A DNA stretch of 43,384 nucleotides from the IMG/VR virus record IMGVR_UViG_3300042312_000024, positions 1-43,384 of that record. One strand, written 5' to 3'. The translations under genes and the position numbers were made by a program. The stretch is from a virus. Below the pieces are notes generated by a model that was not told where the DNA came from, did not search any database, and saw nothing but the letters and a program-made list of their open reading frames with translations. Below are positions 5,436 to 13,619 of this stretch, in pieces (within the stretch, counting starts at the first letter, position 1; each line of letters begins with the position of its first letter).

Positions 5436-8400
5436 TTACTCCTCCATCTGCGCCGCAGCGCCCTTCAGCAGCGGTATGACGTAGGGAAGACGCCCGCCCG
5501 GGAGCACGTCCGCCAGATTCTCCGGACGGCCACTCACGCCCTGCGCGAAGTCGTTGATAACCCCCAGCGCCGGGGCAAAGCTGCCGCCCACGATTTCCTT
5601 GCGATTGCCGAGCTGACCGCCCGCGAGCTGACGCACCCAGTCGGGAGACCCCGTGTCCGTGGCGTGCTCGTACCAGCCACCCGCCACACCCGTACCCACT
5701 TCCAGCACGTCGCCGAGGAACGCCGTCGCGCTGATGTAGTTCATGGTGCTGCGGCCCATCGACAGCGGAGAGAGGGCGTCTTCGATTGCTTCGTCGCGCT
5801 GATCTTCCGGCAGCAGGGCTGCGCGAGATGCAACACGAAGAGCTTGCAACGGGGCCACCACAGCCATCGCTGAGGCGATGATGCCTGCCGTACCCCACGC
5901 GCCGTACAGCCCGACGTATCGTCCGAGCTGTTTCTGCTGCGCCACGAGCGAGAACGTCCGGTGCTGGAACAGCATTTTCAGCCACCCGTTGTGCGCCCAC
6001 TTGCCGGTCTCCCCGATGAAAGTGTCCTGCAAGATTTGGTTCGTGCCTCGGTCGATGGCGTTGTAGAACGCAATCCATGCCTGCCGATCCTGCAACGACT
6101 CCAGCCCACGTGGGTCCACGGCTTCAAGCTTACCGTCCGAACCCCAGCGCACCACCTGATCCTGAGTAGCACGTAAGCGCGCGAGCAGGTTGTCGTCGAT
6201 GCCCATGTCCTTCAGAGCAATGTCGGCCTCTGCGCCATCGCGCAAGAACTTCACACCCTTGGCGATAAGCACCTCAGCGAACCCTCGCTGCTGGACCGCG
6301 AGCACCATGCGCTGACCGGAGAGAATCCGGTTAGCGTTGGCGGTACGCTGCACTAGCGCAGTCAGAAAGCCCGCGCGCTCCGATCCGTAGAGCGAAGCCT
6401 GCGTATCCATAGCGTTGAACATGTGGAGATCGTACCCCGCGAGACCGAAGCCCCGCCCGCTGATGAACTCGAACCCACTGAGGATTCCGTTGTCGGCGTC
6501 TTCACCACGCAGCAGCTTCCCGATTTCGGCACGCATGCGGGGTGCGATGCGGATTGCATCTGCCACACCGGCAGCCCCGACAGCAGGTAGTCCGTTGGAA
6601 TACTCCGCAGCTTGGTTGATACCTGCTCCGCCGAGCTGAATTGCCGAGGTCAGCAGTCGTGCGTTAGCGAGAACCGTCGGGTCGCCAGTGCCGATGACTC
6701 GGCCCGTGAACTCCGACATCACCTGATCGAACGCGCGAAGCTCCACGTCATTCGCACCCGTGACCTGCATCGCCTTGCGGAGAACAGACACGCCCGCGTC
6801 GCCCATGACACCGTGCTTTGCGAGCGCGATGTCACCAGCCACCCGGCCCGCGTACTTGCGGTAGTTGTCCATCACCCGGTTGTCGAGGTAGTCCATCAGG
6901 CGAAACTCGCCTTCCTCGTCCTTGTACTTGCGAGTGACATCCAAGTCGATTCGGCTCTTGGTGTGCTTTGCACCGCCACGGGAGTAGCGACCCATCACCT
7001 GCTGAATCTGCTCCTCATTGAGCGACAGCGCGCGGAGAGTATCCCTCAATGTGTCGGACTGGGAGTCGGAGAACAGGTTGTCCGGGGCACGGTGCATGCC
7101 CGCAGCGCGCTCTTCGATGCGCTCAAGATACTTGATCGACAGGTCGTCGAGGAACTTGTCCCCGTACATCTCTCCCATCATGTCGAACTGATCCCGTATT
7201 GCCAGGCGGATTGCCTCGCGACGAGTGCGCCCGGCAGCAGCGATTTTGCCGCCCAGCCAAGTACGACTTTCGTAACCAGACACTTCCCCGTCGGGAAGCC
7301 GGGAGGAGCCGACCGTACCGACTGCACGCTGCTCCGCAGCCATGCGGTTGTAGCCTTCGTCCAAAACGCGCGCCATCTGCCGCACAGATTCGTGGGCGTC
7401 CGCTACCTCGCGGCCCATGAATCGGGTTTCGCGATACAGCTTTACCTCGTACTCGAACTCGCTTCGCATCTTCCAGCCGGTGGCAAAGTCTTTGATCGCG
7501 CCAGACTTGCGAACGTCCGCACGCCAAAGCCGGTATGCCGCTTCCCACTGACGCGGACGAGAACCCATGAAGGACTCGAAGCGACCACGACGATCCATCG
7601 CCGCAGTGCTGTGCCTGCCCGCCGCACCTTCCGGATTCTCCAACAGAGTCACCGCGATCATACGAGCGACAGGGGACTGCGAGGACATCAGCGTGGTGCT
7701 GGTAGCCTCCAGTCCGAACCGCTGCATTATTGTTGCCAGCTTCTCGGGGTCGATGGCGTACTTACCGCTGAACCTTTCCGCGCGGCCCAGAACTTCAGCC
7801 ACTTGGATTCGGGTAGCATCGTCGCTGATCTGCTTGTCCAGACCCATGCGCGCCACGAAAGCTTTGCGCTCGCGGTTGTTCTTGAAGATGGAGTTAACCA
7901 GCATACCTCGGACTTGCTGCGATGCTGCCTGCGGCGAACGAATCTCTTCGCCGAGCTGCTGCCCGACGACATTCATCAGCCGATCCAGCGCGGTCTCGCT
8001 GCCCTTCAGCCCCAGCACGCGGGCGATCTTGTCCCTCAGCCATTCCCATGCGGTTGCTTGCGGCGCACCCGGAGGCGCGCTGATGTTGCGGAGCACTGCC
8101 TGTGCATCTCGGTTAGTCAGGCCGTAAGAGATAAGCTCGTCCGTGTTCGCAAGGAAGCCCGGGAACTTGGACTGATCCACTCGGCCCTGCATACTCGCCG
8201 TCATCTTGGCACGATCTGCTTCGGAAAGGTTGGCGTTCACATGCGCGAGCAGCTCATCCATCTGAGACTTGAATCCGGTATCCTGCCGCAGAGCAAGGGA
8301 GGTCGCGGCGTGCAGCATCTCGTGCAGCACGACTTCCGGATTGTGGTACTTGCTGTCCAGTGCCATCGAGTTGTGGGCCGGGTTGTACCCACCGCCAATT

Positions 8401-10367
8401 TCCCCGGGCTTCGCGTTCGGGAACCACTGCTGGAGCACCGAGTCCGGCTCGATGCGGACGCCGTTCAGTCTACCGCTGCGCTTCAGCGTATTTGCGATTG
8501 CCCGGTAGTCCTCCGGCACGTTACGCGAGGATTCGAGGTAGCGGAAGATGTCGTCGAGGTTACCCTTGATTCCGCTTATCTTCCACGCGCGCGTCAGCAT
8601 AGGATCGGCTTTCGCCTGCCAGTCCACGCGCCCACCCACGTTGTCGGTATAGAGTCCTGTCGATGCGTCGATGTTCTCGGAGTCACGGGCCAGAGTGCCC
8701 ACAGCGCCCGAAGTAGGGGCCGCATCCTGAGCCACGTCCGGCCTTGCGAACAAGCGGAAGTCGTCCGGCACGTCGGCCATGCCCGCACGAATCCAGTCCA
8801 GAACTTCGGCCTTTGCGAGCGAATGCACCTTGGCGTTGAGGGCAACCGGGTTACCTTCGCCAACTTCTGCGATTGCACGAGCGCGCAAGTCGGCGTTCCA
8901 CTGCTCGCCGTACATTGCGGCATTGCCTGCGTCGAGGTCGATGAGCGCCTTGTCTCGGATTGCCGCGCCGCTCTGGATTCCGCGAATGTTCATCATGGTG
9001 CCGATACCAGATGAGAAAGCAGCATCGGTCAAGAAGTCTGCAACCGTCCTATTCTCGCCCATACCGACAAGCGCCGCGTCTGTCGCCACGGACACTGCCG
9101 CGTTCTCACCAACACTTGACAGGATACCCGCTGCAACCCGGCCTTCAGCGAACAGTGCCGCCGAACCCACGCCCGCAACGCGGACTGTGCCTGAGGCTAG
9201 GCCGCCAGTGGCCCAGTTGGTGGGATCGGTGAGACCCGCCACGAGGTCATATCCGAAGCTGCCCCAGCCGGTCTGGTTGTCTTTGATACGCATGGACGCG
9301 CGGCGTGTGGTAATGCGGTCGAGCGCGTAGGCCAGTTCGCTCGGGGAGTACGCAACGTCACGCAAATCTTCGAGTTCGTCGGCCGTGTAATAGGACTTCT
9401 CCCACTCCTTCGGATCGTAGGTCCAGCCTTCCGGCGTGGTCTCCCTGTCACGAGAGAGCTGATTCACGAGGGCAGCGCCGAGGCCGCTATCGAATGCCGC
9501 ACCCCACTTGTCCGCAAAAGTCAGGGAGTCGCGGAATGCAGCTTCGTCGCGGTCGTCCTGAGTCGCAGCGATTGCTCGGCGGGTGTTGGCTTCGTTCGTC
9601 TGCGTGTCCAGCGCGTCCACTTCCTGCCGCACCCACCACGGAACGACGGTATCGCTGTCCCGAACGGCCATCGCCGAAGCGACGCCCTTTGCAGCGTCCC
9701 CACCTTTGAGCACGTTCTGCCCGAGGGCGAGTTCGCCAAGACCTTCCCGCACCTTGCCGATGTACTCCTTCGTGGCGCGCGAGAGGCTGGTACTGCCTCC
9801 TTCGATGGGATCGCCGCGCCACGCGGCCGGGATACTCGCACCACTCCAAGTCTGCGTTGTCATGTTGCCGGAACCTTCCCACGCATTAGTGAGCGAGGCT
9901 ACGGAAGGAACAGCGCCCTGCGCCGGGGCGCTTTCGGGCGACTGCGACACAGCAGGTGCAGCCTTACCACCGAGAACTGCCGGAGCATAGGCTGCGTTGT
10001 ACTTGCCCCACATTCTGCGGTTCGGTCCGCCTTGGTAGATACGCAGGGCTGTCGTAACATCACCCTTTGCCATCTGCATGTTCTCACGCATGATGTGCGC
10101 GTACATCTCCAGATTGTCCGAGAAGTTCCGAACGTCGTACTTGCGACCCGTGCGGGCTTCGATTACCGCCTGAGTTGCGGGCATGACTTGGAAGTCACCC
10201 TGCGCCCCGGCATGCGAACGGATCACACCGTCCGCGTCACGCTTCGCGCGTCCGTTCGCCGATTCCACACGCCACTGCCCACGCACAACCGACTCCGGCA
10301 CTCCCGCATAAGCGGCAGCCGCAGCGATCTGCTGGTCTTGGGTCAACCCCGAAAGATCGAGTGCCAT
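5436..10367 (-). CDS. Internal virion protein with lytic transglycosylase and zincin-like domains (T7 gp16-like)
   Basis: This 1,643-residue inner-core protein is the largest gene and the counterpart of T7 gp16 (1,318 residues). It is ejected into the host to form a trans-envelope channel. The N-terminus is a soluble-lytic-transglycosylase domain: WRVESANGR with probable catalytic Glu at 35, then GDFQVMPAT with Gln60, for local peptidoglycan cutting. Residues 682-686 are HEMLH, an HExxH zinc-protease signature, followed about 58 residues later by TDELISYG, whose Glu (about 744) could be the third zinc ligand. The rest is mostly helical. ATG 10367 follows AAGGAGACAGACA. Confidence 0.93.
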   Translation of the reverse strand: MALDLSGLTQDQQIAAAAAYAGVPESVVRGQWRVESANGRAKRDADGVIRSHAGAQGDFQVMPATQAVIEARTGRKYDVRNFSDNLEMYAHIMRENMQMAKGDVTTALRIYQGGPNRRMWGKYNAAYAPAVLGGKAAPAVSQSPESAPAQGAVPSVASLTNAWEGSGNMTTQTWSGASIPAAWRGDPIEGGSTSLSRATKEYIGKVREGLGELALGQNVLKGGDAAKGVASAMAVRDSDTVVPWWVRQEVDALDTQTNEANTRRAIAATQDDRDEAAFRDSLTFADKWGAAFDSGLGAALVNQLSRDRETTPEGWTYDPKEWEKSYYTADELEDLRDVAYSPSELAYALDRITTRRASMRIKDNQTGWGSFGYDLVAGLTDPTNWATGGLASGTVRVAGVGSAALFAEGRVAAGILSSVGENAAVSVATDAALVGMGENRTVADFLTDAAFSSGIGTMMNIRGIQSGAAIRDKALIDLDAGNAAMYGEQWNADLRARAIAEVGEGNPVALNAKVHSLAKAEVLDWIRAGMADVPDDFRLFARPDVAQDAAPTSGAVGTLARDSENIDASTGLYTDNVGGRVDWQAKADPMLTRAWKISGIKGNLDDIFRYLESSRNVPEDYRAIANTLKRSGRLNGVRIEPDSVLQQWFPNAKPGEIGGGYNPAHNSMALDSKYHNPEVVLHEMLHAATSLALRQDTGFKSQMDELLAHVNANLSEADRAKMTASMQGRVDQSKFPGFLANTDELISYGLTNRDAQAVLRNISAPPGAPQATAWEWLRDKIARVLGLKGSETALDRLMNVVGQQLGEEIRSPQAASQQVRGMLVNSIFKNNRERKAFVARMGLDKQISDDATRIQVAEVLGRAERFSGKYAIDPEKLATIMQRFGLEATSTTLMSSQSPVARMIAVTLLENPEGAAGRHSTAAMDRRGRFESFMGSRPRQWEAAYRLWRADVRKSGAIKDFATGWKMRSEFEYEVKLYRETRFMGREVADAHESVRQMARVLDEGYNRMAAEQRAVGTVGSSRLPDGEVSGYESRTWLGGKIAAAGRTRREAIRLAIRDQFDMMGEMYGDKFLDDLSIKYLERIEERAAGMHRAPDNLFSDSQSDTLRDTLRALSLNEEQIQQVMGRYSRGGAKHTKSRIDLDVTRKYKDEEGEFRLMDYLDNRVMDNYRKYAGRVAGDIALAKHGVMGDAGVSVLRKAMQVTGANDVELRAFDQVMSEFTGRVIGTGDPTVLANARLLTSAIQLGGAGINQAAEYSNGLPAVGAAGVADAIRIAPRMRAEIGKLLRGEDADNGILSGFEFISGRGFGLAGYDLHMFNAMDTQASLYGSERAGFLTALVQRTANANRILSGQRMVLAVQQRGFAEVLIAKGVKFLRDGAEADIALKDMGIDDNLLARLRATQDQVVRWGSDGKLEAVDPRGLESLQDRQAWIAFYNAIDRGTNQILQDTFIGETGKWAHNGWLKMLFQHRTFSLVAQQKQLGRYVGLYGAWGTAGIIASAMAVVAPLQALRVASRAALLPEDQRDEAIEDALSPLSMGRSTMNYISATAFLGDVLEVGTGVAGGWYEHATDTGSPDWVRQLAGGQLGNRKEIVGGSFAPALGVINDFAQGVSGRPENLADVLPGGRLPYVIPLLKGAAAQMEE

Positions 10368-10379
10368 TGTCTGTCTCCT

Positions 10380-12740
10380 TTACATTTTGGGTTGGATTGC
10401 GATGCTCTCTTGGATACTGCCGTCCGGCATGCGGACGTAGCCCTGTGGCACCGGGATTTGTGTGCGCGTTGCAGCTTTGCGGCGGCGTTCGTACTCGGCC
10501 TTGATGGCAGCACCAGTGACGGCGACGACCTTCCAGCCGCGCTCGCCGACGGTGTTGACGTAGAGCACCGGCTCGCCGCTTTCGCTGTCTCGCATGCGGA
10601 ACACGTCGGCCTTCAGGCTCTTGCTGGGTTCCACGTTGTTGGCACGGAGGGTCGCGTCGATAGCTGCTTCGATTGCCGGACCAGTTTCCTTCGTGTCCAT
10701 GAAACCAAGCCATGCACCCACGCTGCCGATCACGTGCCCTTCGTCGTCTCGACCATTTTCCCAGTAATACTTGCCAGCATCTTCGCCGCCGTACTTCAGC
10801 TTGGCGAGATTTAGCGCGGCCGTGATTCCTTCGGAGGAAGTGTCGAGCAGGCCACCGGATTCGCCGACTGCGCGCACGATGGCACGAGACGCGGCTTGTC
10901 GCCCGGAGTCGCCGAGCTTGTTTCCGAAGTAGCCGAAGTAGGCAGGGTTGGACTTCTGCAACACGTCGGCAACTCGTGCCTGCTGCGCTTCGGATTCCTT
11001 GCGGCTGTTCGCGTTGAACTCCGTCGGGTCGTCAGTGGTGATTTCTCCACGCGCAACCTCGTAGGCCAGCTCGAACGCCACACCGGACTCTTCCAGTGCC
11101 TGCAACTTGTTGAACATGGTGTTCACGCTGTCGCCGAAGTAAAGGCTCGCCGTGGTAGCACCAGATAGGCGGCCAGTGACTGGCTTACCGTCGATGCTGA
11201 GTCGTTGCGCATTGGTGTTCTTCATCATGCGCCACTGGTTGTAGAGGTCACGGGCAGCATCGTTAGGCTGCTCGCGCAGCACGGCCCGCGCCGTCGTCTG
11301 GAACTGATCGGCGACACCCTTCAGGACTACTCCGCGACCTGTGTTTGCATTCCACACGAGCTGAGCCATTGCGACCTGCGGGTTCTTGGCGAGGGTCTGA
11401 TTCCATCCCTGCACCACGTTGGCGTCCAACAGTTCCTTGTCCACGCCCGGGATGTTCACCGTCTGTGCGTAGGTTCCATGACGCCACGAGTCAATTGCCG
11501 CGCGTACATCTTCCTGCTGCGCCGCGAGCTTTGCAGTCTCCGTGTTCGCAGCCTTCTGCGCTGCCGCACGTTCGCGGAGAACGGCTTCCTGCGCCCGGAT
11601 ATGGGCACCTGCGGACTGCGCCATCATGCTCATACGCTGCGTGCCAGAGTACAGAGGATCGTCGCTTCCCGTGGCCGCCGCGTAGGCTGTGTTGAGCTGG
11701 TCGATCTGGGCTTCGGTGGGCTTGGCTCCGATGCCTTCGGAGGCGTACAGCGACACGAGCGCCATCTGCTCCGCAGCCGACGGGTTGGTGTCCAGCCATT
11801 CCGACTTGTACTGAGCCTGCTTCTGCTTCACGTAGGCCGTGAGTTGCAGAGCGTCGTCCGGGTCAAGAGCCGAGAGCACACCACGAGAGTTGAGGAATTT
11901 CAGCGTGTAGAACTCGCCGCGATCCGCAGCGCCGCGAACGAACGCGGTCATCGCTGCCTTGTAGCTGTCGTCCGTCTGGTAAGCAGAGGGTGACAAGCCG
12001 TCGAGCAGACTGAGCTGGGACTGCACGAGCTTATCCGCCTCACCTTCCTCGCCCGGAGCTTTGTTGCCCAGAAGTGCGGTACGCCGTGCCATCTCGTTGA
12101 AGCTGGTGCTGTTCGCGCTGTTGCTCGCGTACTGCGCCTTGACGAGTTCGGCCTGCTGCCATGCCACTCGCTCTTTAGTGTGCAGGTCCATCAGCGGACC
12201 GGCTCGATCCATGAAGGTCTTCTGCAACACGGCATCGGCGTACATGTTGCCAGTCATCTGGCCCTGCGCGAGACGGTTGAACTCCTGCGCCAGTGCTTCC
12301 GGCGGCAGCTTGCGAAGGTCGGGCATCCGAGTGATGAGGTCTTGCTCCATCACGGATACGGATTCCAGCACGTTGTAGTTCTGTGCGCCAATCTCGTAGT
12401 TGGTAGGACCGAACAGCTTGCTGTACCACGGCTGCTCATCCGCAATCTCGTCCATCGTCTTGCCGCTGCGGGCGGCAACAAAGCCGTCCCACATTTGCTG
12501 CTGCTCCAGAGCCTTTCGGTTCGGGGCAGTGATTTCCTCCAAGAACTCAGGGAGGTTGTTGTCGGGCATTCGCATGCCGCCGGTGCTATCGAACCAGTCG
12601 CTACCACTCCGCACCGTTTGGAGCGGGGCTACGCCTCCACCTTGCACACCGGCATTGATGCCAGTGGCGGACACGCCAAGCGCGCCGCCACCGACCGTCT
12701 CGGTGCTGAAGGTGATCGTACCCGGATCACCAGTTGCCAT
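10380..12740 (-). CDS. Internal virion protein (T7 gp15-like)
   Basis: A 786-residue, mostly helical, Ala- and Gln-rich protein lies between the small core protein and the transglycosylase core protein, exactly as gp15 does in T7 (747 residues). In T7 the equivalent forms part of the inner core and of the ejected periplasmic conduit. No enzymatic motif is visible. ATG 12740 follows GGAGAACGCA. Identification is from gene order and size; sequence similarity to T7 itself cannot be judged by eye in this fast-evolving family. Confidence 0.85.
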   Translation of the reverse strand: MATGDPGTITFSTETVGGGALGVSATGINAGVQGGGVAPLQTVRSGSDWFDSTGGMRMPDNNLPEFLEEITAPNRKALEQQQMWDGFVAARSGKTMDEIADEQPWYSKLFGPTNYEIGAQNYNVLESVSVMEQDLITRMPDLRKLPPEALAQEFNRLAQGQMTGNMYADAVLQKTFMDRAGPLMDLHTKERVAWQQAELVKAQYASNSANSTSFNEMARRTALLGNKAPGEEGEADKLVQSQLSLLDGLSPSAYQTDDSYKAAMTAFVRGAADRGEFYTLKFLNSRGVLSALDPDDALQLTAYVKQKQAQYKSEWLDTNPSAAEQMALVSLYASEGIGAKPTEAQIDQLNTAYAAATGSDDPLYSGTQRMSMMAQSAGAHIRAQEAVLRERAAAQKAANTETAKLAAQQEDVRAAIDSWRHGTYAQTVNIPGVDKELLDANVVQGWNQTLAKNPQVAMAQLVWNANTGRGVVLKGVADQFQTTARAVLREQPNDAARDLYNQWRMMKNTNAQRLSIDGKPVTGRLSGATTASLYFGDSVNTMFNKLQALEESGVAFELAYEVARGEITTDDPTEFNANSRKESEAQQARVADVLQKSNPAYFGYFGNKLGDSGRQAASRAIVRAVGESGGLLDTSSEGITAALNLAKLKYGGEDAGKYYWENGRDDEGHVIGSVGAWLGFMDTKETGPAIEAAIDATLRANNVEPSKSLKADVFRMRDSESGEPVLYVNTVGERGWKVVAVTGAAIKAEYERRRKAATRTQIPVPQGYVRMPDGSIQESIAIQPKM

Positions 12741-12755: not shown

Positions 12756-13619
12756 TTAGAACCAGCCGAGACCCTTGGTCTTGGTGTTGAAGTTGTCCTC
12801 GCCACCCACCTTGGTGATCTTCGCGCCCGTGCCCGCGCTACCGGCAGCTGCCGGTGAGGAAGGTCCGGTGCCGTCGTTGTAACCGAACGTGGCCGAAGCC
12901 CACGACTTACCGCCGCGCTGCGAAGCCTGCTGCCACGCAGCCGCTGCGCCTTGCCCGGCTTTCGCCATGCTGACACCCATACCTTGGAAGTCGCCGTTCT
13001 GTCCCTGCCACTCTGCCACAGCCGCGTTTGCTGCCGCTTCGCCTGCCTGCGGGCCACCGAAGTAGGTAGCAGCCGCCACACCGACGAGCTTCAGGAATCG
13101 GTTGTTCATGGCCTTTGGCGCGATATGCTGGCTGAAGTCGAACTGGCCGAAGGTTCGGCCGATGTCCATTCCCTTGTACGCGCCCACCATGATCTGTGCC
13201 GTCTGCTTGGCACCGCGACTTGCCATCAGGTTGAGTGCGTTGTTCTGCATCTCCTGATCCATCTCGGATTGCAGCCGCACCATCGTATCCATGAGGTCGG
13301 CAGACGAGCCACCGACACCCACGTAACCTGCCTGCGCAGTAAGCGCCCCGCGCGCCGCAGCAAGCTGAGCCTGCGTGTTTAGGCTTGCACCTTGCTTGGC
13401 GCGAAGCTCCTCCGAAAGCTGCTCCATCTGGAAGTTGTATTCCTTCGACGCAGCGTTCACGCGCTCCCGGTTGTTGAGGGAACGCATAAACTCGGACAGG
13501 TTGCCCTTTGCGACTTCAAGCTTGTTGGTGTTCTTGGTCTGAGCAACCGCAGCACGGTAGTTGGCACGGGCGATTCGGGTGATGTTGTTGGATTGGACGA
13601 TGGTACTTACGCCGCCCAT
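12756..13619 (-). CDS. Internal virion protein (T7 gp14-like)
   Basis: A 287-residue protein placed right after tail tubular protein B, the position of T7 gp14, which forms the outer-membrane part of the ejected conduit. Residues about 1-150 are helical with long charged or Gln/Ala-rich helices (ASKEYNFQMEQLSEELRAK). A weakly hydrophobic segment lies near residues 176-190 (LVGVAAATYFGG). The tail is Gly/Ala/Ser-rich. The start overlaps the stop of the upstream gene (TAATG) and is served by a GAGGAGGG Shine-Dalgarno sequence within it. Confidence 0.85.
   Translation of the reverse strand: MGGVSTIVQSNNITRIARANYRAAVAQTKNTNKLEVAKGNLSEFMRSLNNRERVNAASKEYNFQMEQLSEELRAKQGASLNTQAQLAAARGALTAQAGYVGVGGSSADLMDTMVRLQSEMDQEMQNNALNLMASRGAKQTAQIMVGAYKGMDIGRTFGQFDFSQHIAPKAMNNRFLKLVGVAAATYFGGPQAGEAAANAAVAEWQGQNGDFQGMGVSMAKAGQGAAAAWQQASQRGGKSWASATFGYNDGTGPSSPAAAGSAGTGAKITKVGGEDNFNTKTKGLGWF

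What the first reader, a model, noticed from the sequence alone, without database searches (positions are those of the whole stretch)
7900..8400. Zincin-like HExxH motif inside the ejected core protein
HEMLH at residues 682-686 with a Glu in TDELISYG about 58 residues later looks like a zinc-peptidase active site within the gp16-like protein, which already has an N-terminal transglycosylase domain. If active, the virion would deliver two enzymes on one chain, cutting wall glycans and then a peptide or protein target in the envelope or cytoplasm. T7 gp16 does not have this insert.
Basis: partly seen in the sequence, partly recalled or inferred. Interest (0 to 1): 0.7.

Follow-up and report, generated by a model that had tools for sequence, protein, structure and literature searches.

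The report
Zinc-protease module in phage injection protein
A protein that a T7-like phage injects ahead of its DNA carries, besides a wall-cutting domain, a built-in zinc-protease domain of a kind already known from other injected phage proteins; it sits in a part thought to reach the host cytoplasm, and nobody has yet shown what it cuts.

Summary
The 1643-aa gp16-like ejection protein (window 5436-10367, minus strand) has HEMLH at aa 682-686 and a conserved Glu (E744) 58 residues later. It is not chance: about 1% of composition-matched shuffles contain any HExxH. In 61 diverse homologues (17% mean column identity) the only invariant columns are H682, E683, H686 and E744. A confident AlphaFold2 model (core pLDDT above 90) matches anthrax lethal factor's protease domain, PPEPs and ejection proteins of phages N4 and PhiM1. 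The domain belongs to the zincin-like MPTase modules of 'polyvalent' phage proteins (Iyer 2017). New here: (1) it is a ~270-aa module in a fixed slot of the gp16 hub, just after the first membrane region (T7 gp16 ~468/479), occupied in some relatives and empty in T7 and close cousins; (2) the same module is in phiKMV gp37 and in PhiM1 gp48, where a 2024 paper called it 'endolysin/exotransglycosidase-like'; (3) it appears to be exchanged as a cassette between related phages. Most likely it is a zinc protease acting after ejection on the cytoplasmic side, more probably on a host protein than on itself. Activity and target are unproven. A new member of a known kind.

The parts
5436..10367 (-). 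gp16-like internal virion (ejection core) protein, 1643 aa
   Evidence: ORF; phrog_342 'internal virion protein with endolysin domain' E 5.7e-243; 86% identical full length to Pradovirus IVIA-DoCa9
9990..10313 (-). N-terminal SLT transglycosylase domain, aa 19-126; putative catalytic E35 at nt 10263-10265
   Evidence: Pfam PF01464 E 1.1e-4, above cut-off; E35 aligns with T7 gp16 E37
7896..8717 (-). insert relative to MPTase-less gp16 proteins, aa ~551-824 (T7 gp16 between ~468 and 479)
   Evidence: alignments to T7, Pepon, SB4
7830..8624 (-). zincin-like metallopeptidase (MPTase) domain, HMM match aa 582-846; modelled fold core aa 587-787
   Evidence: profile A2; AF2 model mean pLDDT 81.8, core above 90; fold matches
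8310..8324 (-). HEMLH, aa 682-686: predicted zinc ligands H682, H686 and catalytic base E683
8136..8138 (-). E744, predicted third zinc ligand (in NTDELISYGLTN)
10380..12740 (-). gp15-like internal virion protein (ejectosome tunnel partner)
   Evidence: phrog_3883 E 2.5e-198
12756..13619 (-). gp14-like internal virion protein (ejectosome partner, by position)
   Evidence: phrog_11550 E 3.7e-107

Best explanation
The gp16-like core protein of this Pradovirus-type podophage carries a zincin-like metallopeptidase module (MPTase; lethal-factor/PPEP-like fold, gluzincin ligand set H682, H686, E744, base E683) inserted as a self-contained ~270-aa cassette into the hub, just after the first membrane region. 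Proposed working: the protein is packaged whole, unfolds and is ejected; the N-terminal SLT domain cuts peptidoglycan; the chain crosses the inner membrane; the hub and MPTase refold on the cytoplasmic side, bind zinc and cleave a protein there. The substrate is more likely a host protein (early takeover or counter-defence) than the ejection protein itself. Shown here (computationally): domain identity, conserved ligand set, fold, insertion site, mosaic presence. Inferred: zinc binding, catalysis, topology (transferred from T7), substrate. My step estimates: zincin-fold MPTase 0.95; catalytically competent 0.75; acts after ejection on the cytoplasmic side 0.65; host protein rather than itself as main target, given the rest, about 0.6.
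For: Fold and site: AF2 model with core pLDDT above 90; VIA-align Z 8.4 to N4 vRNAP, 7.0-7.2 to lethal factor residues ~594-772, 6.9 to PhiM1 gp48, 6.0-6.5 to PPEP-1/2/3; BFVD hits are vRNAPs, polyvalent proteins and internal core proteins. Sequence: profile hits to solved ejection proteins 9sfn (phiKMV gp37, E 7.8e-59), 23sg (3.9e-14), 8vb2 (1.2e-12) and N4 vRNAP 11fw (1.3e-7). Catalysis: the four catalytic positions are the only invariant columns at 17% mean identity; domain dN/dS 0.11-0.23. Cytoplasmic side: the insert lies at T7 gp16 ~468/479, within gp16-C (411-1118), placed in the cytoplasm after TMH I (243-410) in PMC8954989. Acts late, not in the head: N4 vRNAP is packaged unprocessed (PMC5512222), and 8vb2, from mature PhiM1 virions, has one chain with 1103 modelled residues spanning the domain. 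Accessory cargo rather than ejection machinery: absent from T7, Pepon, SB4, BL199, SoKa, LKA1, yong1, Atu_ph02 and K1-5, present in phiKMV, PSTNGR1 and Konnatiik; nucleotide identity between phages L13.2 and L002 drops from ~95% to ~80% only over aa ~561-720.
Against: No activity, metal or substrate data exist here or in the papers found. Z-scores to lethal factor and PPEP are about 7, a level this tool calls common, and Foldseek alone found no significant PDB match (best E 0.38). The N4 match (Z 8.4) is printed with residue numbers (2374-2579) that differ from N4's own HExxH position (2228-2232); I read this as a numbering offset because the spans agree in length, but could not check. Topology is taken from T7, whose own post-ejection gp16-C position is modelled. 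The host-versus-self argument is indirect.
Confidence: 0.5

Rival explanations
1. Self-processing: after ejection the MPTase cuts its own chain or ejection partners, releasing the cytoplasmic hub from the SLT/periplasmic part, as proposed in general for polyvalent proteins.
For: Iyer et al. 2017 propose autoproteolysis; phage P1 DdrB, with a C-terminal MPTase, is processed to 76 kDa. The module sits between two functional halves of the chain.
Against: Many gp16 proteins ejected by the same route have no MPTase, so processing is not required for ejection. N4 vRNAP is packaged whole. Apparent cassette exchange and faster divergence than the hub fit cargo better.
Confidence: 0.27
2. Wall or envelope enzyme: the domain helps break peptidoglycan in the periplasm (cutting stem peptides, or glycans as annotated), as PhiM1's authors assumed for the homologous domain.
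For: PMC11440229 labels PhiM1 gp48 268-528 'endolysin/exotransglycosidase-like'. phiKMV and PhiM1 carry a lysozyme-like domain on the partner protein, so wall functions are shuffled in this system.
Against: That region matches the MPTase profile (HMM E 1.2e-12; hhalign probability 97.3%) with HExxH 385-389 and E449; Pfam finds no glycosidase in it. The profile does not match the window's own SLT domain. The insert follows TMH I, on the cytoplasmic side in the T7 model.
Confidence: 0.13
3. Structural or degenerate module: it keeps the fold but acts only in packing the core or contacting the gp15 ring.
For: The N4 region containing the MPTase is needed for encapsidation; in PhiM1 the insert changes hub-tunnel contacts.
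Against: Invariance of exactly the four catalytic residues among very divergent copies, including motif-independent finds, is not expected of a scaffold.
Confidence: 0.1

Closest known systems
phiKMV gp37 internal core protein (PDB 9sfn chain G)
   Same: same MPTase (HEAVH ... KELVAWGLTD) at the same place in a gp16-like chain; profile E 7.8e-59
   Different: no N-terminal SLT domain on this chain; the lysozyme-like region is at the C terminus of the neighbouring gp36 by record annotation
PhiM1 gp48 tetrameric ejection protein (PDB 8vb2)
   Same: homologous MPTase inserted in the hub, HEAAH 385-389 and E449
   Different: published as 'endolysin/exotransglycosidase-like' (PMC11440229); no SLT on the chain
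N4 virion RNA polymerase C1 domain (PDB 9pnt, 11fw)
   Same: homologous HExxH...E domain (2228-2232, E2310) in an ejected virion protein; phrog_2206 match
   Different: attached to an RNA polymerase and a large C2 domain; described by Iyer 2017 and PMC12633501
Zincin-like MPTases of polyvalent proteins (Iyer et al. 2017, PMC5512222)
   Same: core of N-helix, three strands, HExxH helix and Glu helix; multi-domain injected proteins, including lysozyme + MPTase fusions
   Different: the passages read discuss vRNAPs, P1 and plasmid proteins; T7-type gp16 core proteins with this module were not among them
Anthrax lethal factor protease domain (M34) and PPEP Pro-Pro endopeptidases
   Same: gluzincin ligand set; fold match Z 6.0-7.2
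   Different: 11-17% identity over aligned residues; exported or secreted proteases; no sequence-level membership shown

Membership tests
Zincin-like MPTase of polyvalent/ejected phage proteins | HExxH plus a downstream Glu on the next conserved helix | tested here: met
   H682, E683, H686, E744 invariant; helices 111-129 and 176-185 of the model
Zincin-like MPTase of polyvalent/ejected phage proteins | N-helix, three-stranded sheet, two C-terminal helices | tested here: met
   DSSP of the model: helices, strands 72-74, 93-96, 101-104, then the HExxH helix and the Glu helix
Zincin-like MPTase of polyvalent/ejected phage proteins | part of a large multi-domain protein delivered with the genome | tested here: met
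   gp16-like ejection protein with SLT domain; presence in this phage's virion inferred from homologues
Zincin-like MPTase of polyvalent/ejected phage proteins | zinc binding and proteolysis | not testable with these tools
   needs metal analysis and a protease assay
gp16-like ejection protein (phrog_342) | full-length match and position after the gp15-like gene | tested here: met
   E 5.7e-243 over aa 2-1643; gp15-like and gp14-like neighbours
SLT lytic transglycosylase | SLT fold with catalytic Glu | tested here: met
   PF01464 22.2 bits against cut-off 21.3; E35 aligns with T7 E37
Anthrax lethal factor / PPEP family (M34) | sequence-family membership | tested here: inconclusive
   no Pfam M34 match; fold match only, Z 6-7
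Lytic exotransglycosylase/endolysin (label given to the PhiM1 homologue) | glycosidase or transglycosylase domain in this region | tested here: not met
   Pfam finds none in PhiM1 gp48 or phiKMV gp37, nor in this insert; the region matches the MPTase profile instead

The most novel reading that the evidence does not exclude
The gp16 hub of T7-like podophages has a dedicated cargo slot, just inside the inner membrane, in which phages swap early-acting enzymes (two distinct zincins, possibly other enzymes); here it holds a protease that cuts a host protein within the first minutes of infection, before any phage gene is expressed.
Probability: 0.3. Interest if true: 0.8.

Novelty: new member of a known kind. 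Interest (0 to 1): 0.48.

Why it matters
phiKMV-type and Pradovirus-type phages are used or considered against Pseudomonas and Xanthomonas, and their largest injected protein is usually annotated only as a (exo)transglycosylase. If the module is an active cytoplasmic protease, these phages deliver a protein-cutting enzyme before any gene is expressed, which is directly testable with one point mutation. It also suggests that a published structural domain (PhiM1 gp48 268-528) needs a new label.

Tried and rejected
Pfam, NCBIfam and PADLOC gave no name for the domain. Plain Foldseek against PDB was not significant; only the second look with VIA-align and the profile search of PDB sequences named relatives. 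The motif being a chance hit: rejected. A protein-query scan of viral contigs with the domain alone found nothing, and in genome contigs an alignment query found only 4 loci; a profile scan of 693 bacterial genomes found only the two seed genomes, so the module is largely a virus module. The P26059B insert (HEVGH) was tested as a copy of the same module and rejected at sequence level (hhalign probability 0.4%). The alpha-ketoglutarate HExxH enzyme alternative hinted at for N4 (PMC12633501) was not pursued: the fold match was to proteases. No paper on phiKMV gp37 (9sfn) or 23sg was found in the library.

Full report
What is there. The window is a phage record whose closest named relatives are Pradovirus phages of Xanthomonas and a Stenotrophomonas phage (86% identity over the whole protein). 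The gene at 5436-10367 (-) encodes a 1643-aa gp16-like internal virion protein (phrog_342, E 5.7e-243), next to gp15-like and gp14-like ejection protein genes. Its N terminus is an SLT transglycosylase domain whose E35 aligns with the T7 gp16 catalytic E37 (T7 E37 from PMC8954989).

The motif. HEMLH is at aa 682-686 (nt 8310-8324) and E744 at nt 8136-8138. It is the only HExxH in the chain; the expected number by composition is 0.01. Across 11 homologues the invariant residues are H682, E683, H686, T689, N741, E744, L745, G749, T751, Q756, L759 and A793. Across 61 homologues with 17% mean column identity only H682, E683, H686 and E744 remain invariant. Those rows were partly chosen by motif, but every one of the 80 viral loci keeps both parts, and so do the homologues that came in through tblastn or gp16 homology alone.

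The fold. AlphaFold2 with the 61-row alignment gave a model of aa 567-845 with mean pLDDT 81.8 and above 90 in most of the core. It has helices, a three-stranded sheet, the HExxH helix and then the helix that carries E744. The VIA-align second look ranks N4 virion RNA polymerase first (Z 8.4, 161 residues), then anthrax lethal factor's protease domain (Z 7.0-7.2, residues ~594-772), PhiM1 gp48 (Z 6.9) and PPEP-1/2/3 (Z 6.0-6.5). These Z values alone are middling. What makes the assignment firm is the agreement with sequence: the profile finds phiKMV gp37 (9sfn, E 7.8e-59), 23sg gp10 (3.9e-14), PhiM1 gp48 (8vb2, 1.2e-12) and N4 vRNAP (11fw, 1.3e-7) among solved structures, and the literature independently assigned the N4 domain to the zincin superfamily (PMC5512222; PMC12633501).

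The slot. Relatives without the module (T7, Pepon, SB4, BL199, SoKa, LKA1, yong1, Atu_ph02, K1-5) close the gap to about 16-45 residues where the window has 305. The insert is aa ~551-824, equivalent to T7 gp16 ~468/479. PhiM1's authors likewise describe their domain as inserted into the hub. phiKMV, PSTNGR1 and Konnatiik carry the same module at the same place. Curvibacter phage P26059B carries a different HExxH segment there (HEVGH) that the profile does not recognise, and phiKT a different insert of about 138 residues. In Pradovirus comparisons the module evolves faster than the hub (75.6% versus 90-94% identity to DoCa9) but under purifying selection, dN/dS 0.11-0.23. Between phages L13.2 and L002, nucleotide identity falls from about 95% to 80% across aa ~561-720 and then recovers, while L002 and L003 stay at 85-97% there, which looks like exchange of the cassette by recombination.

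Where it would act. In the T7 model (PMC8954989) gp16 has SLT 1-156, a gp15-binding tape 157-228, TMH I 243-410 and a cytoplasmic gp16-C 411-1118. By homology the SLT of this protein is periplasmic and the MPTase cytoplasmic. Homologous chains are whole in mature virions (8vb2; N4 vRNAP, PMC5512222), so any cutting should happen after ejection. This argues against a wall role and against pre-packaging self-cleavage.

Best reading. A zinc metallopeptidase carried as accessory cargo in the ejected core protein, working on the cytoplasmic side early in infection; a host protein is a somewhat likelier substrate than the protein itself, because the module is dispensable for ejection in relatives, appears to be exchanged as a cassette and recurs in unrelated injected proteins (vRNAPs; the DarB-like protein of Parlo). 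Zinc binding, catalysis and target are inferred, not shown.

Relation to known systems. It meets the sequence and fold features of the polyvalent-protein MPTase class and is a new member of it. The specific additions are its place in T7-type gp16 proteins together with an SLT domain, the slot, and the reassignment of PhiM1 gp48 268-528 from 'endolysin/exotransglycosidase-like' to MPTase. Similar 'peptidoglycan lytic exotransglycosylase' labels on phiKMV-type gp37 proteins, which show no Pfam transglycosylase, look like annotation transfer.

Limits. Model coordinates and PDB coordinates could not be opened, so ligand distances and bound metal were not checked. The N4 residue range printed by the aligner differs from N4's own numbering; the spans agree in length, so I take it as an offset. 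Literature was limited to open-licence papers.

Noticed in passing
L110:32197-35988 (PhiM1 gp48, PDB 8vb2): The domain published as 'endolysin/exotransglycosidase-like' (Asp268-Asp528, PMC11440229) is the same zincin MPTase module: HEAAH 385-389, E449, profile E 1.2e-12.
   Followed up: yes
L102:676-5409 (Curvibacter phage P26059B gp16-like, 1577 aa): At the same slot lies a different HExxH segment (HEVGHFVF ... FDEFAAEQF) not recognised by the MPTase profile; possibly a second, unrelated zincin clade. Its N-terminal wall enzyme is a glucosaminidase (PF01832), not SLT.
   Followed up: partly
L100:1489-5691 (Escherichia phage phiKT gp16-like): The slot holds about 138 aa with LHRG...WWTTD...DEVVF, which from memory recalls an ADP-ribosyltransferase layout; not tested.
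   Followed up: no
window 8007-8609; L002, L003, L011: The MPTase core appears to be exchanged between related Pradovirus phages by recombination (nucleotide identity dips from 95% to 80% over the module only).
   Followed up: yes
phage records (phiKMV-type gp37): Many gp37 proteins without an SLT domain are annotated 'peptidoglycan lytic exotransglycosylase', probably transferred from the shared phrog_342 family.
   Followed up: partly
L004:3289-10725 and L005:2467-12402: Xanthomonas phage CP2 (2478 aa) and Serratia phage Parlo (3312 aa) giant proteins each contain two HExxH sites; the first of each is this MPTase type, the second of another type.
   Followed up: no
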